Shown: one piece after another, positions 23,221 through 36,062 of the stretch | Numbering within the stretch: position 1 is the stretch's first letter | Layout: each line of letters begins with the position of its first letter | Assembly: GCA_020718845.1 (NCBI GenBank) | Contig: DYRG01000020.1 | Span: 1 to 48,039, forward strand | Direction: 5' to 3' | DNA from: Thiomargarita sp. | GTDB taxonomy: Bacteria; Pseudomonadota; Gammaproteobacteria; Beggiatoales; Beggiatoaceae | Length of the DNA: 48,039 bases | The notes under the pieces: model-generated | What the model was told of the DNA's origin: nothing | Seen by the model: the letters and a program-made list of their open reading frames with translations, nothing else | The model's database searches: none | Program-made: the position numbers and the translations under genes

Positions 23221-26200
23221 TCAATTAGAATTACTCATTTTGCTCATCGATGAAAGATTATCAAAGGTTTCTACGATGCGAACGGTTTCTACAGAAACTC
23301 TACAAACACGACCTAACAAATCAATCACTTGTTCTTTATAATCTGCAAAACAATAATTATTAAATTTCTCTGCAATTGTCGCATCTTTGGGGGTTTTTTC
23401 TTTGTATTGATCTAAAACCCATTCTAACGCGCTGCGATTTCCCAATTTGTAATCCCATGCTTCATTTGGAACGCCACTTAATTGCGTATTTTCATCTAAA
23501 ATAATTACGCCATTTATTTTATCGGCTTTTAATTTAACTTTAGGGAGTTTAGTGATTTCTGAATCAAAGCGTTTCAAAGGATATTTTTCAACGCTTTCAT
23601 AATTCAAATGTAAATCCATTAATTCTTTACCTAAACTCGCCCATTGCTCAAATTTTTCGTACAAAGGAATGCGAGGAAATTCCCGCTTTAAATTTTGCTC
23701 ATATTTCTCACGATAGTTTGGATCATGCAATACCGCATACACATAATTAAATATCCGTTCTTTTGTAATTTCTGGATTGTTATAATGCTTTTGAAATAAC
23801 TCCAATGCCCAATCTGTTATATTTTCCTGTTGATTTCCTTGTTTGTCGTAAATATAAAGAGGTAGGCATTGATTATCACCTAAAAAATGTAAATCAGAAA
23901 TGATATTAGATGCAAAATACCTTAAATCTTTTCCGTTTGTATTTACGTTTAAAATAAAATTATTTTTATCTAAATTTCCTCCAAACATATCATAATGATT
24001 TTGGGTTAATCTATCACTTAGTAAGTTTTCTGCATAATAAAAATTTTTTACAAATGGTCTATAATTTGATTTTATTATTAAGTTTTTATCAAATTTAAAA
24101 GAAAGGTTGCGATTAAAAATAGATTTTAAAGATTCACTCCATTTTATTTGTTCATTCCAACTATAATCTTGCTTATTTAATAATTTGTTATAAATATTTA
24201 TAATAAAATTGACTTTTTTTTCTAAATTATTTTTATCAAAATCATAAACCCATTCATCTCTATTTGTAACAACACCATTTGAAAATAATTTAAAAATGGC
24301 TTTCTCATTGTTTCCTAATTTTACTTCTTTATCACAAACGGGAATTAAAGCATCAAAATCATTATCTGATTGATTAATCCAATTATTTTGATTATCAGGA
24401 GCGATTAAATCAAATGCAAAGTTAATTCTATTTTCAGAAAGCCAATTTAATTTTTCTCTCTTTAGCATTTCATCGGGTAAAGATAAATAGTAAATTTGGC
24501 AGGGCTTCTTTTGTAAAGAAAGACTTTTCTTTTTAACTAAAAACATAAATGCCACGCCCGTTTGGATTCCAAAAACGTTATGTGTTGTTCCCGCAATTTT
24601 TGGATTAGCTCTTACATCGCTTTTTGTGTCAATAATATAAGCAAAATCAAATTCTTGTTTAATACATTCTCTAAATCCATCAAATGATTTTGCATTGATA
24701 AATGAATTATTAGTAACAAAAGAGATTATCCCTTGTCCTTTATTTATTTTATCATTACTAATTCGATCACTTGCCCAGCGATAAAAACGTGAATACATAT
24801 CATAGACTTTAGTTTTCTGAGCTTTGCTTGCTTTAATGTAAGTCTTTTTTATTTGCTCATCGACAATTTTATATACGCGATTTTTATTATTATCGTTCTC
24901 ATTTTGTTGGTTAGCATTGTAAGGCGGATTACCAATAATCACGCTAATTTGTTGCTCATTTTGTTTTTTAATGCGAGTGGTATTTTCAACATTAAAACCA
25001 ATACCCTCAATTTCAATATTTACTCCTTCAATACCAAAACCTGCATTATCTAAAGTATCTACCCAACAAAGATTATTAAATTTATAATCGGGATCGGATA
25101 TTTTATTGTGTTTAAAATATGCCTGCATTTTTTGTTGATAGGTATATTCGATGTTTAGGTTTGCAATGTAATAAGGTAATAAACCTAACTCATTACAAAA
25201 AATATCGTTTTTATATTTAAATTCTAGTTTGTCATGTGGTAAGTAATCAATTAGGTCACAAATATATGTACCTGTACCAACACAAGGGTCGAGGATTTTA
25301 ATATTTTCATCGGCGAGAGTTGCATTAAAATGTTTCTTTAGTAAATCCTCAACACTTCTGATTTGAAATTTAACAATTTCGTGTGGGGTATAAATAATCC
25401 CCATTCTATCTGCCGCTTTATTGTTATAGACATTATAAAAGTTTTCGTAAAATGCTTTCAAAAAGGCTTGTTTATCATGATAATTAACGATTTTAATCGC
25501 GTACTTTTTAATGGTATCATAATAACTTTGAATGCCAGAGAGCGTTTCTCGTTTTTTTGTGTTATCTCCAAATAGAGTAGATTCTAATTCATATAATTTT
25601 TCAGCAATATTATTTTTTTTATGGATGTTAGCATCATCAAAGATACTCATAAAAATTTCTTCGGTTAAAATGTGTTGCAAAAGCATTTCATTAACATCGC
25701 CAATTGAGATATTTGGATTAATACTTTTTTCACAAATACTAAGGAATTTTTGACGCGCCTCTGTAAATGATGAGTTTATTTGTTCAGTAAGCGAGATTTT
25801 TTGATTAACCATTTCTAAAATTACGGGTAGAGAATCTTTAAATTTATCCATTGCCTCATAAAATTCTCTAACTTCTTTAGACTTAAAAGTTATAAATTTA
25901 GTTAGTAATTTATCTAAATTTTCTCTTTCATTTAAAGAGCATTGAAAACATCGTATTCCCTCTTGATATAAAATAGCATCTTTGTCATCTTGAAATAAGG
26001 TATTACTTAATGGATAACCCGCCGCGATTTTATCAATAATTTCATTTTCTAAATGAACATTTGCTTTAGATTCCCAATAGCCAAAGTCAATTAAATTATT
26101 ACAAATAGTTCCGTCTGGTTGTATATTTTGCCCTTGTGCATTTTTAATAGTTTTTTCATCAACAAGAAATAGTTCATCTTTATTTTTAGCACAATATTTA

Positions 26201-26310
26201 CTAAGTAAATTAGCAAAATGTCGTCGAATAGCTAACTCATGATCAACCCCGCCATGAATCTTTGTATTTATTACTTCCTTTTCATATTCTTCAATATCTT
26301 GAATGGACAT
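23221..26310 (-). CDS. Single-chain restriction-modification enzyme, type ISP-like without helicase
   Basis: A 1029-residue protein combining nuclease and N6-adenine methyltransferase. A PD-(D/E)xK-type nuclease is suggested at the N-terminus by P65-D66 and E80-S-K82 (GYWESKAN). A helical linker follows to about 300. The methyltransferase begins with YTPHEIVKFQ; motif I is ILDPCVGTGTY (339-349) and motif IV is NPPY (461-464). The C-terminal half should be the target-recognition region, ending in LGNRSALEWVLDQYKEKTPK, typical of the type ISP (LlaBIII-like) specificity domain. No DEAD/DEAH helicase is present, so the layout is like type IIG. The gene is visibly more AT-rich than its neighbours, which suggests transfer. 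Confidence 0.88.
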   Translation of the reverse strand: MSIQDIEEYEKEVINTKIHGGVDHELAIRRHFANLLSKYCAKNKDELFLVDEKTIKNAQGQNIQPDGTICNNLIDFGYWESKANVHLENEIIDKIAAGYPLSNTLFQDDKDAILYQEGIRCFQCSLNERENLDKLLTKFITFKSKEVREFYEAMDKFKDSLPVILEMVNQKISLTEQINSSFTEARQKFLSICEKSINPNISIGDVNEMLLQHILTEEIFMSIFDDANIHKKNNIAEKLYELESTLFGDNTKKRETLSGIQSYYDTIKKYAIKIVNYHDKQAFLKAFYENFYNVYNNKAADRMGIIYTPHEIVKFQIRSVEDLLKKHFNATLADENIKILDPCVGTGTYICDLIDYLPHDKLEFKYKNDIFCNELGLLPYYIANLNIEYTYQQKMQAYFKHNKISDPDYKFNNLCWVDTLDNAGFGIEGVNIEIEGIGFNVENTTRIKKQNEQQISVIIGNPPYNANQQNENDNNKNRVYKIVDEQIKKTYIKASKAQKTKVYDMYSRFYRWASDRISNDKINKGQGIISFVTNNSFINAKSFDGFRECIKQEFDFAYIIDTKSDVRANPKIAGTTHNVFGIQTGVAFMFLVKKKSLSLQKKPCQIYYLSLPDEMLKREKLNWLSENRINFAFDLIAPDNQNNWINQSDNDFDALIPVCDKEVKLGNNEKAIFKLFSNGVVTNRDEWVYDFDKNNLEKKVNFIINIYNKLLNKQDYSWNEQIKWSESLKSIFNRNLSFKFDKNLIIKSNYRPFVKNFYYAENLLSDRLTQNHYDMFGGNLDKNNFILNVNTNGKDLRYFASNIISDLHFLGDNQCLPLYIYDKQGNQQENITDWALELFQKHYNNPEITKERIFNYVYAVLHDPNYREKYEQNLKREFPRIPLYEKFEQWASLGKELMDLHLNYESVEKYPLKRFDSEITKLPKVKLKADKINGVIILDENTQLSGVPNEAWDYKLGNRSALEWVLDQYKEKTPKDATIAEKFNNYCFADYKEQVIDLLGRVCRVSVETVRIVETFDNLSSMSKMSNSN

Positions 26311-31608: not shown

Positions 31609-32539
31609 AAAAAGTTTATTTTTAGCACTTTTATGGAGTATTTCTAATTTTTCAATTGCTTGTGATTTAACGATTGCAAAGATTCAATGGCATGAAAAAT
31701 TATTAAATAATATCAGTGTATTGCGAAATGGTAAAACACATTTCATTACTGAAAAAGATCGTGAATTATGTCGTGGCGATCAACTCACCGTTCCTCAACA
31801 AGCTGTGCCAGTCACGATTTGGTATTACAGTGAATCTCCTAATAAAGAAGAAATCATAGTACCAACCACTAATTATCAACTTCGAGAACTTAAAGAACCT
31901 TGTGGAATGTGGTGCAAAGTCGAAGATAAAATTGTTAGTTTGGTGGATAAATTAACTAAAGCAATTAAGCCTAAAACAGAAAGATTTACTTCTAGTTCTA
32001 GTAAAGGTCCTAAGCCTGCCATTATTTTAGAGGATGACATATTATTAACGAGCGTAGCAACACGAGGTAATGATGAGAATAAACCTGTGTTTATGCCGTT
32101 AAGTGCAGGAAAATCAAAAAATGCACCGTTTTTTTTATTTACTAATGAAGGAAAAGTTAATCTATTTTGGCATAATGGAAAGCCTCCTTTTCAAATCATT
32201 TTACAAGATAATAACGGTAATGAATTATCGCGGTCAGAAACAAAGCAACGTGAGTGGGCTTTTATTCCTAGCACGTTTGAAGTCGGAACGATTTATCATT
32301 TGATTATAAAAGATCAATTAAATCAATCATATAGTTCAAAAATTGAATTTACCGTTCCGCCGTTACCCATTGATTCTAAAGCAGATAAATTCACATTATT
32401 TGCGACCTTATTACAACAAGAAAAACTCAAAGGAAACTCCAAAAATTGGCGTTTAGAAATTTATCGCCAATTGCTTGCTTTACCAGACAGTCCAGAAAAA
32501 CAAAATTTTCTCGACCATTTAATTGCCGATGATTTTTAA
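31598..32539 (+). CDS. Exported protein of unknown family in the CHASE2/CHAT operon
   Basis: A 313-residue protein with a signal peptide ending near IAC22; the context is a poor lipobox, so it may be a free periplasmic protein. Residues about 25-85 (VLRNGKTHFITEKDRELCRGDQLTVPQQAVPVTIWYY) vaguely resemble the gene-expression-type FecR beta domain or the DUF928 proteins that accompany CHAT genes in cyanobacteria; this is a weak impression. A middle region (about 165-260) looks like an Ig-type beta fold. No catalytic motif is seen. It is translationally coupled to the CHASE2 gene and ends 13 bases before the TPR-CHAT start. Confidence 0.7.
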   Translation: MNTKKSLFLALLWSISNFSIACDLTIAKIQWHEKLLNNISVLRNGKTHFITEKDRELCRGDQLTVPQQAVPVTIWYYSESPNKEEIIVPTTNYQLRELKEPCGMWCKVEDKIVSLVDKLTKAIKPKTERFTSSSSKGPKPAIILEDDILLTSVATRGNDENKPVFMPLSAGKSKNAPFFLFTNEGKVNLFWHNGKPPFQIILQDNNGNELSRSETKQREWAFIPSTFEVGTIYHLIIKDQLNQSYSSKIEFTVPPLPIDSKADKFTLFATLLQQEKLKGNSKNWRLEIYRQLLALPDSPEKQNFLDHLIADDF

Positions 32540-32552
32540 AAGGAGAACAATC

Positions 32553-35500
32553 ATGAAGCATTTTTTATTGGTTATTTTGTGCTTGTTTTCATTTTCAGTA
32601 CAAGCACCTAGACCTCCTATCGAAGAAATTAAACACCAAAAACTCAAAACTGATAGCAACTTACTGTGGAAATATCTTCGACAAAATCGCTTCAAAGATG
32701 CTTTATCGTTAGCAGAACAAAACTATGAACTACTAAAAAGTTTATTAGGTGAAAAGCACCCTGACACTATTACGAGTCTCATAGCGTTGGCAGGGGCTTA
32801 CTACAAGTCAGAGCGTTTTATTGACTCTCTTCCACTTAAAGAAAAAATTTATTTATTGGATAAAGAAATATTAGGCGAAAAACACCCTGAAACACTTATT
32901 AGTCTCGATAATTTGGCACTAAATTATCTTAAATTAAACCGCTTATCTGAAGCACTAGTACTTAATGAACAGTCCTTCGCCTCATTTAAAGAAGTTTTAG
33001 GAGAAAAACACCCCGATACCCTACAAAGTCTTAGTAATTTAGCAGTAATTTATAACAAATTAAAACGACATGATAACGCATTGCTCTTTGATCAGAAAGC
33101 CTACATTTTGAGAAAAGAAATAATGGGTGAAAAGCACCCACATACATTAGAAAGTCTTAATAACTTAGCTGCTAGTTACTGTAGCATAAATAATTGCACG
33201 GAAGCACTGCCTCTTGCACAAAAAGCTTACACATTGCGTCAAGAAATATTAGGAGAAAGACATCCCAGAACTCTTTTTAGTCTTGATTTATTAATTTCAA
33301 TTTATGAAAAATTAGGCAATTTTAAAGAAACATTACCTCTTAATAAGCAAATATATAAATTAAAAAGTAAAACTCTCGGAGAAAAACATCCTGATGTACT
33401 TGCAAGCCTTCAGAAGGTGGCATCAAACTATATTGATTTAAACTTCCTTGAGGATGCGCTATTGCTTAATAAACAAATTTATGAAATGCGAAAAGAAATA
33501 TTTGGTGAAAATCATGTTGATACTCTTGATAGTTTAGATCAATTAGTAGTCAACTATCAAAAACTTGGCTATTTTAAATATGCAATACCTCTAAGTGAAA
33601 AAGCATATGCTATTAGAAAAGAGAATCAAAAAGAGCTTTCAATTGAACGATGTCTTTCTAGACCAAATGATGAGTGGTGTTCTTCAGACTCAAAGATTCT
33701 AATTGATAATTTATTAATTAAAAGCCTAAATAACCTAGCAACAAGTTATGAGTATTTACATTATTTTACAGATGCGCTAACTCTTCGTGAGAAGATTTAT
33801 GCTGAAACTAAATTACTGTATGGCGAGAAAAATTTGAACACTATTGTTACGCTAGACAATCTAGCAACAGCTTACACTAATTTACACCGTTCTATAGAAG
33901 CATTACCTCTCCGTAAACAGGCATATGCATTAGCAACGCAAGTATTAGGAGAAAGAAATTACCATACTCTCATAAGTCTAGATAATTTAGCAGCAGCTTA
34001 CTCTAAGTTAAACAATTTTGTAGAAGCACTTCCCCTACATGAAAAGTCATACACCTTATTCAAGGAAATATTGGGAGAACACCACCCAGACACCCTTATG
34101 AGTCTTCACAATTTATCGGCGATCTATAACTCGTTAGGTCAGGAAACAAAAGCACTTTCTCTTGGGAAGAAAGTCTATGCACTAAAAAAAGAAATTCTAG
34201 GGGAAAAACATTCTAGCACATTGAATAGCCTTACTCAGTTAGCTTACTACTACCAAAGTGTAAATCAAGTTGAACAAGCTATTATTCATTTTGAAAAAGC
34301 ACTGGAAAGTGTAAATAAACAACAAATCTACTTAAATCTAACAATACTGTATCTTTCTCAACGTAACATTAAAAAAGCCTTTTTTACAGTAGAAAGAGGA
34401 AAATCACGAAACTTATTAGCAGAAATGGCTCGAAAATTTGCAATTAATCATGCAGGATTGAGTGGTAAGGAAATCAACCAACATGAAAATTTAATTTCCA
34501 CGATTGGTAAATTAGATGAAATGATTTCAAAAACTGAAGAATTAGAAAAACGTTTAAGTTTGCGTCCTGAACACACCCGTTTAAATCAAGAATTAGCAGA
34601 ATCATCACATCGACAATTAGCAGATAAATATGTTGAATATCGTCAACTAAATGCAGTAGAAACTGCTAGTTTGGAAGAACGCTTAAATCTTCGCGCTGAA
34701 TATACTCGTTTAAATCAAGAGTTAGCAGAATTACATCAACAATTAAGTGATAAATACCCAAAATACCGCCAATTGAATGCAGTAGAAATTGTCGATGCTG
34801 AAAAAGGTAAAGATTTATTGCCTGAAAATGGATTATTTGTTAATTATTTAATTGGAGCAAAAAATCATTTATTAGCCTTTATTCTTGACAAAGAAGGTGG
34901 ATTAGAAAGCTATGATTTAGGAGAAATCCCCAATTTGGAACAAACTATCGAAGCTTATCGTAAAACTTTAGGTGTTGGTGGTATTCTAAACCTAAGAGGC
35001 AATGGTTTGTATGTTTATGAATTGGAAGATGGGAGTTTCACAACGGCAACAGATGCTCCAGAAAATTCTCGTAAGTTAGGAGAAGAAGATGAAGGATTAA
35101 TTGGAGCATATTTGAGCAATAAATTATTAATTCCTTTAAAAGATTCTTTAAGTGAAAAAGAACGGTGGATTATTTCTCCCGATGGGGCGTTGGCATTATT
35201 ACCTTTTGAAACCTTGCCTTTTAATCAACAAATGGTGATTGAACAACACAGCGTGAATTATGTGCAATCATTATCAGTGTTAAATTTGCTTAAACAACGT
35301 CAAGCCGCGTATCAAAGTCAAACCGACCGCCAATCCTTATTAGCAATGGGCGCGGCACGTTATGAAAAACCTAATCAAATCTCAAATAAAATAGAAATAA
35401 ATGCTTTTGAAATCAGTGCACGATTAAAACAAGGTGCATCTGATCAACAGTCTTTAAATCAACTCGTTGCCATGCAACAAAAAGAATGGAAAAACTTACC

Positions 35501-36062
35501 CGCCTCTGAAAAAGAATTACAAAATTTAGAAACACTCTTTGAGAAAGAAAAACCGCTCATTCTACGCAAAGAAAAAGCCAGCGAAAGTCATTTATTAGAA
35601 CTCAATAAACAACGGGTTTTAACAAACTATCGTTATTTATTATTTTCTACGCACGGCTATTTTAGCCCGATTCATCCCGCCTTATCGGGCATCGTTTTAG
35701 ATCAACTCCACACGCCCGCCCCCACCGATGGCTACATCAACGCCGCCGAATGGGTTGGTTATGATTTACGAAGCGATTTGATGGTGTTGTCGGCGTGCGA
35801 AACAGGTGTGGGACAAACCAGCGGCGACGGCGTTTTAGGTTTGCCTTATGCTTTATATGTCGCTGGAAATACGAATACGTTATTGACTTTATGGACAATT
35901 TTAGATGAAAGTACCGCCGAATTTATGCGTCGTTTCTTTAGTCGTTTGCAACAAGGCGAAAATCATGTCGATGCTTTAACTTCAGTGAAACGCGAGTTTC
36001 TCAAAGAAAACAAATACCGCAATCCTTTACATTGGGCAGCTTTTATTCTTTACGGCATTTAA
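32553..36062 (+). CDS. Exported TPR-CHAT caspase-like protein
   Basis: A 1169-residue protein starting at the ATG at 32553 after AGGAGA. A signal peptide (LLVILCLFSFSVQA) directs it out of the cytoplasm. From about residue 40 to 620 there are at least eleven kinesin-light-chain-like 42-residue TPR units marked by GE[KRN]HPxTLxSLxNLA. One unit is interrupted by an insert with C367 and C376. A coiled coil with an internal duplication (about 640-745) leads to a C-terminal CHAT domain (about 770-1169), with the caspase-like dyad H1034 in FSTHGYFSP and C1082 in LSACETGVG. CHAT proteins are clan CD peptidases, some of them active proteases. Target unknown. It is the last gene of the CHASE2 operon. 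Confidence 0.92.
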   Translation: MKHFLLVILCLFSFSVQAPRPPIEEIKHQKLKTDSNLLWKYLRQNRFKDALSLAEQNYELLKSLLGEKHPDTITSLIALAGAYYKSERFIDSLPLKEKIYLLDKEILGEKHPETLISLDNLALNYLKLNRLSEALVLNEQSFASFKEVLGEKHPDTLQSLSNLAVIYNKLKRHDNALLFDQKAYILRKEIMGEKHPHTLESLNNLAASYCSINNCTEALPLAQKAYTLRQEILGERHPRTLFSLDLLISIYEKLGNFKETLPLNKQIYKLKSKTLGEKHPDVLASLQKVASNYIDLNFLEDALLLNKQIYEMRKEIFGENHVDTLDSLDQLVVNYQKLGYFKYAIPLSEKAYAIRKENQKELSIERCLSRPNDEWCSSDSKILIDNLLIKSLNNLATSYEYLHYFTDALTLREKIYAETKLLYGEKNLNTIVTLDNLATAYTNLHRSIEALPLRKQAYALATQVLGERNYHTLISLDNLAAAYSKLNNFVEALPLHEKSYTLFKEILGEHHPDTLMSLHNLSAIYNSLGQETKALSLGKKVYALKKEILGEKHSSTLNSLTQLAYYYQSVNQVEQAIIHFEKALESVNKQQIYLNLTILYLSQRNIKKAFFTVERGKSRNLLAEMARKFAINHAGLSGKEINQHENLISTIGKLDEMISKTEELEKRLSLRPEHTRLNQELAESSHRQLADKYVEYRQLNAVETASLEERLNLRAEYTRLNQELAELHQQLSDKYPKYRQLNAVEIVDAEKGKDLLPENGLFVNYLIGAKNHLLAFILDKEGGLESYDLGEIPNLEQTIEAYRKTLGVGGILNLRGNGLYVYELEDGSFTTATDAPENSRKLGEEDEGLIGAYLSNKLLIPLKDSLSEKERWIISPDGALALLPFETLPFNQQMVIEQHSVNYVQSLSVLNLLKQRQAAYQSQTDRQSLLAMGAARYEKPNQISNKIEINAFEISARLKQGASDQQSLNQLVAMQQKEWKNLPASEKELQNLETLFEKEKPLILRKEKASESHLLELNKQRVLTNYRYLLFSTHGYFSPIHPALSGIVLDQLHTPAPTDGYINAAEWVGYDLRSDLMVLSACETGVGQTSGDGVLGLPYALYVAGNTNTLLTLWTILDESTAEFMRRFFSRLQQGENHVDALTSVKREFLKENKYRNPLHWAAFILYGI
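34542..34787 (+). repeat. Tandem duplication inside the TPR-CHAT gene
   Basis: Two units, 34542-34670 (43 codons) and 34671-34787 (39 codons or more), encode nearly the same helical sequence. The first starts LEKRLSLRPEHTRLNQELAE and the second LEERLNLRAEYTRLNQELAE; both end in YRQLNAVE. It lengthens the coiled coil between the TPR array and the CHAT domain. The copies differ at many silent positions, so the duplication is not very recent. Confidence 0.85.

What the first reader, a model, noticed from the sequence alone, without database searches (positions are those of the whole stretch)
23221..26310. Type ISP-like restriction enzyme lacking the helicase
The chain has an N-terminal PD-(D/E)xK signature (D66, E80, K82), methyltransferase motifs (motif I at 339-349, NPPY 461-464) and a type ISP-like C-terminal specificity end, but no SF2 helicase. 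That layout should cut near a bound site as type IIG enzymes do instead of after translocation. It sits where mutL often lies, upstream of miaA, and is clearly more AT-rich than its surroundings.
Basis: partly seen in the sequence, partly recalled or inferred. Interest (0 to 1): 0.5.

Follow-up and report, generated by a model that had tools for sequence, protein, structure and literature searches.

The report
DrdV-type single-chain restriction-modification enzyme
The gene encodes a one-piece bacterial DNA-cutting and DNA-marking enzyme of an already known type (close to DrdV), ordinary in itself, but its family turns out to be broken again and again at one loop, with toxin-antitoxin genes lodged in the break, including in a sister copy in the same genome.

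Summary
In detail: an intact 1029-aa ORF lies on the minus strand at 23221-26310, with D66/E80/K82, motif I 339-349 and NPPY 461-464 as stated, and no helicase. It is a full-length relative of DrdV, a solved Type IIG enzyme of the same length (phmmer E 1.7e-271; Foldseek E 8e-89, 43-44% identity). Residues 1-144 fold as the DrdV nuclease (Z 23.2). The match to Type ISP enzymes starts only at residue 186, and mutL has not been displaced.

Outside the window is something less ordinary. In 29 related loci, one of them in this genome (contig C32), the gene is split at the loop between window residues 592 and 604, a predicted beta-hairpin of the methyltransferase; 14 other breaks are scattered. In 26 of the 29, small same-strand ORFs, mostly toxin-antitoxin families, sit between the halves, often with overlapping stop/start codons. 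Both halves stay under purifying selection. Trees need at least 10-13 changes between split and fused. I found this in no paper searched. The window gene is the unsplit sister of such a copy. No activity, target or assembly was tested.

The parts
23221..26310 (-). Whole gene, 1029 aa, DrdV-type IIG restriction-modification enzyme
   Evidence: intact ORF; phmmer to 7lo5 (DrdV) E 1.7e-271 over 1-1014; Foldseek E 8e-89; PADLOC IIG model 1-1023
25879..26310 (-). Residues 1-144: PD-(D/E)xK nuclease domain
   Evidence: AF2 of residues 1-175, mean pLDDT 92.2; DrdV chain 7lvv_C Z 23.2, rmsd 1.2 over 141 residues; BpuSI Z 11.3
26065..26115 (-). D66, E80, K82: nuclease triad
   Evidence: D, E and K present in 77 of 77 fused relatives (window included); in 25 split ones D 23, E 24, K 24, the rest gaps
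25483..25878 (-). Residues 145-276: helical linker and ISP-like coupler
   Evidence: Pfam ISP_coupler 165-276; helices in the model
24481..25458 (-). Residues 285-610: N6-adenine methyltransferase
   Evidence: Pfam N6_Mtase; motif I at 25264-25296 and NPPY at 24919-24930
24499..24531 (-). Residues 594-604: hairpin loop between strands 586-593 and 605-610; the point where 29 related loci are split
   Evidence: AF2 secondary structure; split positions
23317..24300 (-). Residues 671-998: Type ISP-like C-terminal specificity domain
   Evidence: Pfam Type_ISP_C E 1.8e-92

Best explanation
The gene is a single-chain Type IIG restriction-modification enzyme of the DrdV kind. The C-terminal domain together with the methyltransferase reads an asymmetric site; the methyltransferase marks one adenine in it; the N-terminal PD-(D/E)xK nuclease cuts at a short fixed distance downstream, without ATP and without translocation, probably only when several site-bound copies assemble, as described for DrdV. 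Shown here: the sequence relationship, the predicted folds and the intact catalytic residues. Inferred from DrdV: methylation, cutting distance and assembly. Unknown: the target sequence and whether the enzyme is expressed.
For: Full-length match to DrdV at the same length, E 1.7e-271; Foldseek to 7lo5 E 8.3e-89, 43-44% identity, TM 0.72-0.75; PADLOC IIG model end to end. The nuclease domain alone: AF2 pLDDT 92.2, DrdV Z 23-24 and BpuSI Z 11.3. Triad, motif I residues and NPPY present in 77 of 77 fused relatives, window included. No helicase family; the LlaBIII match joins window residue 186 to LlaBIII residue 749. Against the own-genome split copy dN/dS is about 0.27 for the N half and 0.42 for the C half (dN 0.242, dS 0.911; dN 0.295, dS 0.702). 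DrdV's activity is in print.
Against: No activity or methylome data. The promoter-like sites in the region are no more than shuffles give (21 against 20.2), so expression is not shown. The recognition part is variable in the family, so DrdV's target must not be assumed. The AF2 model is weak at 426-440 and 466-475.
Confidence: 0.93

Rival explanations
1. A Type ISP enzyme that lost its helicase by deletion and keeps at most methylation.
For: Coupler and C-terminal domain are the Type ISP Pfam families; LlaBIII and LlaGI are the next structural matches at 26-27% identity.
Against: The N-terminal 185 residues match DrdV, not LlaBIII; 77 of 77 fused helicase-free relatives keep the nuclease triad; helicase-free relatives occur in many phyla.
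Confidence: 0.03
2. A methyltransferase with a silent nuclease, kept for gene regulation rather than defence.
For: None direct; it is a solitary gene with a methyltransferase.
Against: The triad is complete, its fold is confidently predicted and it is invariant in fused relatives.
Confidence: 0.04
3. For the family-level pattern: the split relatives are genes destroyed by toxin-antitoxin insertion and are now decaying.
For: Of 29 split loci, seven carry a further break: L089, L124, L163, L174, L177 and L178 and L167, whose N half is in two ORFs. Three have no ORF in the gap: L098, L142, L152.
Against: 29 breaks at one loop against 14 scattered; N halves dN/dS 0.024-0.145 in 12 pairs and C halves 0.18-0.43 in the 11 pairs with a value; split points agree across deep clades; 26 of 29 C halves begin with the same A-x-I-x-Y start.
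Confidence: 0.2

Closest known systems
DrdV (Deinococcus wulumuqiensis 479; PDB 7lo5, 7lvv), Type IIG
   Same: Length 1029, full-length homology, domain order, nuclease fold, methyltransferase motifs
   Different: 43-44% identity; C-terminal recognition part diverged, so target unknown
Type ISP enzymes LlaBIII and LlaGI (4xqk, 5ffj)
   Same: Coupler, methyltransferase and C-terminal specificity region from residue 186 on
   Different: No SF2 helicase-like ATPase; N-terminal region not matched in sequence
BpuSI (3s1s) and MmeI (5hr4), other single-chain IIG/IIL enzymes
   Same: Same general layout; BpuSI nuclease fold Z 11.3
   Different: About 10% identity; Foldseek E 3e-10 and 4e-9 only
Defence genes embedded in Type I systems (DarTG2 between hsdS and hsdR, PMC12255303; PrrC in EcoPrrI, PMC12707154)
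   Same: Toxin or toxin-antitoxin genes lodged inside a restriction operon; analogue of the split relatives, not of the window gene
   Different: There the guests sit between whole genes; here they sit inside what is one gene, and one domain, in the relatives

Membership tests
Type IIG, DrdV kind | Full-length homology to DrdV | tested here: met
   E 1.7e-271 over 1-1014; Foldseek E 8e-89
Type IIG, DrdV kind | N-terminal PD-(D/E)xK nuclease with intact triad | tested here: met
Type IIG, DrdV kind | N6-adenine methyltransferase motifs in the same chain | tested here: met
   motif I and NPPY, Pfam N6_Mtase
Type IIG, DrdV kind | No helicase or ATPase domain | tested here: met
   no such family at E up to 1; length 1029 aa
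Type IIG, DrdV kind | Cuts at a fixed short distance from an asymmetric site, several copies assembled, and methylates an adenine in it | not testable with these tools
   known for DrdV only
Type ISP | SF2 helicase-like ATPase in the chain | tested here: not met
Type ISP | Coupler plus ISP C-terminal specificity domain | tested here: met
Type ISP | Mrr-family N-terminal nuclease | tested here: inconclusive
   no sequence match before residue 186; LlaBIII nuclease not among the rows shown, which excludes nothing

The most novel reading that the evidence does not exclude
The DrdV-type family has one privileged break point, a beta-hairpin loop of the methyltransferase (window 24499-24531). There the gene has been split, or rejoined, many times independently, and toxin-antitoxin modules of unrelated families have been lodged between the halves. 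The halves are kept as a two-subunit enzyme, nuclease-methyltransferase plus a separate specificity protein, re-forming the methyltransferase sheet across two chains. The lodged module makes the locus addictive or guards it, and the free specificity gene is easier to exchange. The window gene is the unsplit sister of such a unit (C32: UPF0175 plus a PIN-like ORF) in the same genome.
Probability: 0.6. Interest if true: 0.65.

Novelty: new member of a known kind. Interest (0 to 1): 0.42.

Why it matters
The window gene itself adds one more DrdV-type enzyme with an unread target, useful mainly to enzyme catalogues. The family pattern would matter more. If the halves work together, nature has repeatedly turned a one-piece enzyme into a two-piece one at a single loop, which gives a ready split site for engineering and a route from one-piece to separate-specificity systems. 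It also gives a clean case for asking whether toxin-antitoxin modules guard restriction genes. This genome holds both forms, C61 fused and C32 split, as a natural comparison.

Tried and rejected
Displacement of mutL: rejected; mutL is at C73, and it was the nearest upstream ORF in none of the 30 miaA loci read (26 with a readable upstream ORF, 4 without). An empty site for the insertion next to miaA was not found, for want of a close relative.

Re-fusion of the window gene from a split ancestor: attractive, because it groups with the C32 split copy (SH-aLRT 99) inside a five-row set whose other four rows are split. It is not supported: holding the four split rows together without the window is not rejected (p-AU 0.357), parsimony ties, and the window loop keeps a Cys, as do 55 of 76 other fused ones.

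A phage origin: the 4 viral-contig hits and 2 phage records (residues 187-1014 only, 30.5%) do not point to one. A plasmid relative (Geminocystis pGM04) is fused, with a Fic gene downstream. Promoter and terminator scan: at shuffle level. Predicting the target sequence was not tried.

Sampling limits: the search profile A1 was built from four split C halves, which favours split loci, so the counts are not frequencies. Pfam counts for cargo and control come from 'alignments' of unrelated ORFs used only as containers; for the control 25 of 45 families are shown, so a family with one member may be hidden. Candidates listed that I did not fetch (for example G651:C12 and G359:C262, open frames 585 and 511 aa) are not classified. 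L098 is a doubtful split (its C ORF starts late). Dropped before counts: L001, L008 and L182 as duplicates, and one of L002/L003 (same locus). The N tree left out L089, L124, L152 and L163 (short N parts). The C tree left out L039, L174, L177 and L178 and added four C halves without a paired N half (L059, L060, L166, L168).

Full report
The observation. The ORF is on the minus strand, 26310 down to 23221, 1029 aa, intact. Pfam finds the Type ISP coupler, an N6-adenine methyltransferase and the Type ISP C-terminal specificity domain, and no helicase. PADLOC's best model is a Type IIG enzyme, matched end to end.

What it is. The closest solved protein is DrdV (7lo5, 7lvv), matched from residue 1 to 1014 at E 1.7e-271. 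The match to LlaBIII and LlaGI begins only at residue 186. AlphaFold2 with 50 relatives gives mean pLDDT 83.2; Foldseek puts DrdV first (E 8e-89, 43-44% identity), then LlaGI and LlaBIII at 26-27%. Residues 1-175 predicted alone reach pLDDT 92.2. They match the DrdV nuclease at Z 23-24, BpuSI at 11.3 and, lower and less certain, HsdR, NucC and EcoRV. The triad, motif I residues D341 and G345, and NPPY are present in 77 of 77 fused relatives, window included.

How it most likely works. By homology to DrdV, which recognises CATGNAC and cuts 10 and 8 bases downstream in a multi-copy assembly (PMC10201449, passages; PMC6430315, passage): an asymmetric site is read by methyltransferase and C-terminal domain together, one adenine is methylated, and unmodified DNA is cut nearby without ATP. 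The layout without a helicase is known; [quoted passage not shown] The target here is unknown.

Setting. The gene lies upstream of miaA-hfq-hflX. mutL is elsewhere, and the nearest upstream ORF was mutL in none of 30 miaA loci read, four of which had no readable upstream ORF. The gene is 28.4% GC against 38.1% for the rest of the window, but the other family copies measured in this genome are similar at 29-32%. One search found five further contigs of this genome with matches (C32, C68, C98, C111, C74); C68 and C98 are probably two ends of one gene at a contig break.

A finding outside the window. The nearest copy in the same genome, on contig C32, is not one gene. Its nuclease-methyltransferase part ends at the equivalent of window residue 592, its C-terminal part starts at 604 with its own ATG, and two ORFs sit between: a UPF0175 protein (88 aa) and a 148-aa PIN-like protein (Pfam PIN E 0.022, below the cut-off). 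UPF0175 and DUF433 are predicted antitoxins of PIN toxins in PMC2701414 (passages). The stop-to-start gaps are 1, -1 and 1 bases.

I looked for more with a profile of four such C halves: 42 genomes of the family, a scan of 84,980 genomes of which the best 80 loci were kept, 194 genomes of the class of a cyanobacterial locus, 295 genomes of the class of a Cytophagales locus and 369 of the own class. Stretches were read and classified by script. Result: 76 distinct complete fused genes besides the window, and 29 distinct split loci: 7 in the own family, 12 in named records (Methylococcales, cyanobacteria, Bacteroidota and one doubtful deltaproteobacterial MAG) and 10 in the cyanobacterial draw. 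All are split at the same place. Among the genes found in two or more ORFs, 29 breaks fall at this loop and 14 elsewhere. In the AlphaFold2 model the place is the loop between strands 586-593 and 605-610, which I read as inside the methyltransferase rather than at a domain border.

What lies in the break. In 26 of 29 split loci there is at least one same-strand ORF of 50 aa or more between the halves. Of 66 such ORFs, Pfam gives PIN 8, DUF2281 6, DUF433 6, DUF4258 4, MqsA 4, ParE 3, HicA 2, UPF0175 2, GIY-YIG 2, and single XisH, XisI, DUF5615, PIN_2, PemK, VapB, RhuM/Fic, DUF3800 and DUF2971, plus a few weaker overlapping matches (some ORFs match two families; single checks). Calling DUF2281, DUF433, DUF4258, DUF5615 and XisH/XisI toxin-antitoxin-like rests partly on recall. 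Four of the 26 show no family I would call toxin-antitoxin: L039 (no family), L062 (DUF2971), L088 (GIY-YIG), L090 (DUF3800). As a control, 65 ORFs within 1500 bases downstream of 50 fused genes gave a different mix: 25 of 45 families shown, no PIN among them, PemK 2, and HigB, HicA, Gp49, Zeta and DarT one each. So toxin-antitoxin genes also occur near fused copies, but the break is far richer in them. The first ORF begins within 25 bases of the N-half stop in 24 of 26, and the C half begins within 25 bases of the last ORF in 20 of 26 (read, where ORF starts are the earliest possible codon).

Is it function or decay? In split pairs dN/dS is 0.024-0.145 for N halves (12 pairs) and 0.18-0.43 for C halves (11 pairs with a value of 12 tried); synonymous sites are near saturation in several. 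In the group L164/L165/L167 the N halves are 98-99% identical while the C halves are 70-78% and the cargo differs, so cargo and specificity turn over between conserved ends. 26 of 29 C halves begin with the pattern A-x-I-x-Y near the new start, seen in only 4 of 76 fused ones, which mostly have Cys in the loop (55 of 76). Against: seven split loci carry another break (L089, L124, L163, L174, L177 and L178; L167) and three have no ORF in the gap.

How often did it happen? On the N-half tree (102 rows, 25 split) split and fused interchange at least 13 times, 11 forced by well-supported branches; on the C-half tree (106 rows, 29 split) 13 and 10. One single split clade is rejected (p-AU 2e-156). 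Both are quick trees under LG+G4, and the N tree came with a warning about long branches. The direction of change is not shown. The two halves group differently (for example C32 with the window by N half, with a Cytophagales split copy by C half), which points to exchange of the specificity half.

What is in print. Paper searches answered: (ten). Passages read describe toxins or toxin-antitoxin pairs between whole restriction genes: DarTG2 between hsdS and hsdR (PMC12255303), PrrC within a Type IC locus (PMC12707154), HEPN families and RhuM/Fic near restriction genes (PMC3710099), and a general hypothesis of coupled immunity and suicide (PMC3506569). None of the passages read describes a one-piece Type IIG gene broken at one loop by such modules. 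Most subscription papers are not in the library; the DrdV structure paper did not appear in the listing, and PMC12255303 cites a preprint on embedded defences (reference list) that I have not read.

Verdict. The split, cargo-bearing relatives are the part worth following; the window gene is their intact sister and a useful control.

Noticed in passing
G000:C32:39782-43538 (L002, L003): Own-genome paralogue split at the hairpin loop, with a UPF0175 ORF and a PIN-like ORF between the halves.
   Followed up: yes
L040 (G018:C11, N half near 58778) and L059 (G018:C11, C half near 904717): Two halves about 845 kb apart on one contig; the C half follows an AbiEi/AbiEii pair, and the N half is followed by a short PIN-like fragment.
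   Followed up: partly
L042 and L060 (G020): N half and C half on different contigs, no partner next to either.
   Followed up: no
L102 and L149 (Bacteroidota): Genes broken near residues 253-317, possibly a second break point or just frameshifts.
   Followed up: no
L067: Gene in two ORFs overlapping by 4 bases at residues 476/482, right after NPPY.
   Followed up: no
small matches, e.g. G017:C320:5393-5692; also L094, L108, L138: Short orphan pieces of the C-terminal end lie near fused copies, possibly scars of exchanged specificity halves.
   Followed up: no
L099 (1395 aa) and L175 (1389 aa ORF): Relatives with about 370 extra residues at the C end and several hundred at the N end respectively.
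   Followed up: no
G000:C68 end and G000:C98 start: Probably one further family copy (36-48% identity) cut by a contig break.
   Followed up: no
window 32523-36062: Long repetitive protein that looks, from memory, like TPR repeats with a CHAT peptidase end; not searched.
   Followed up: no
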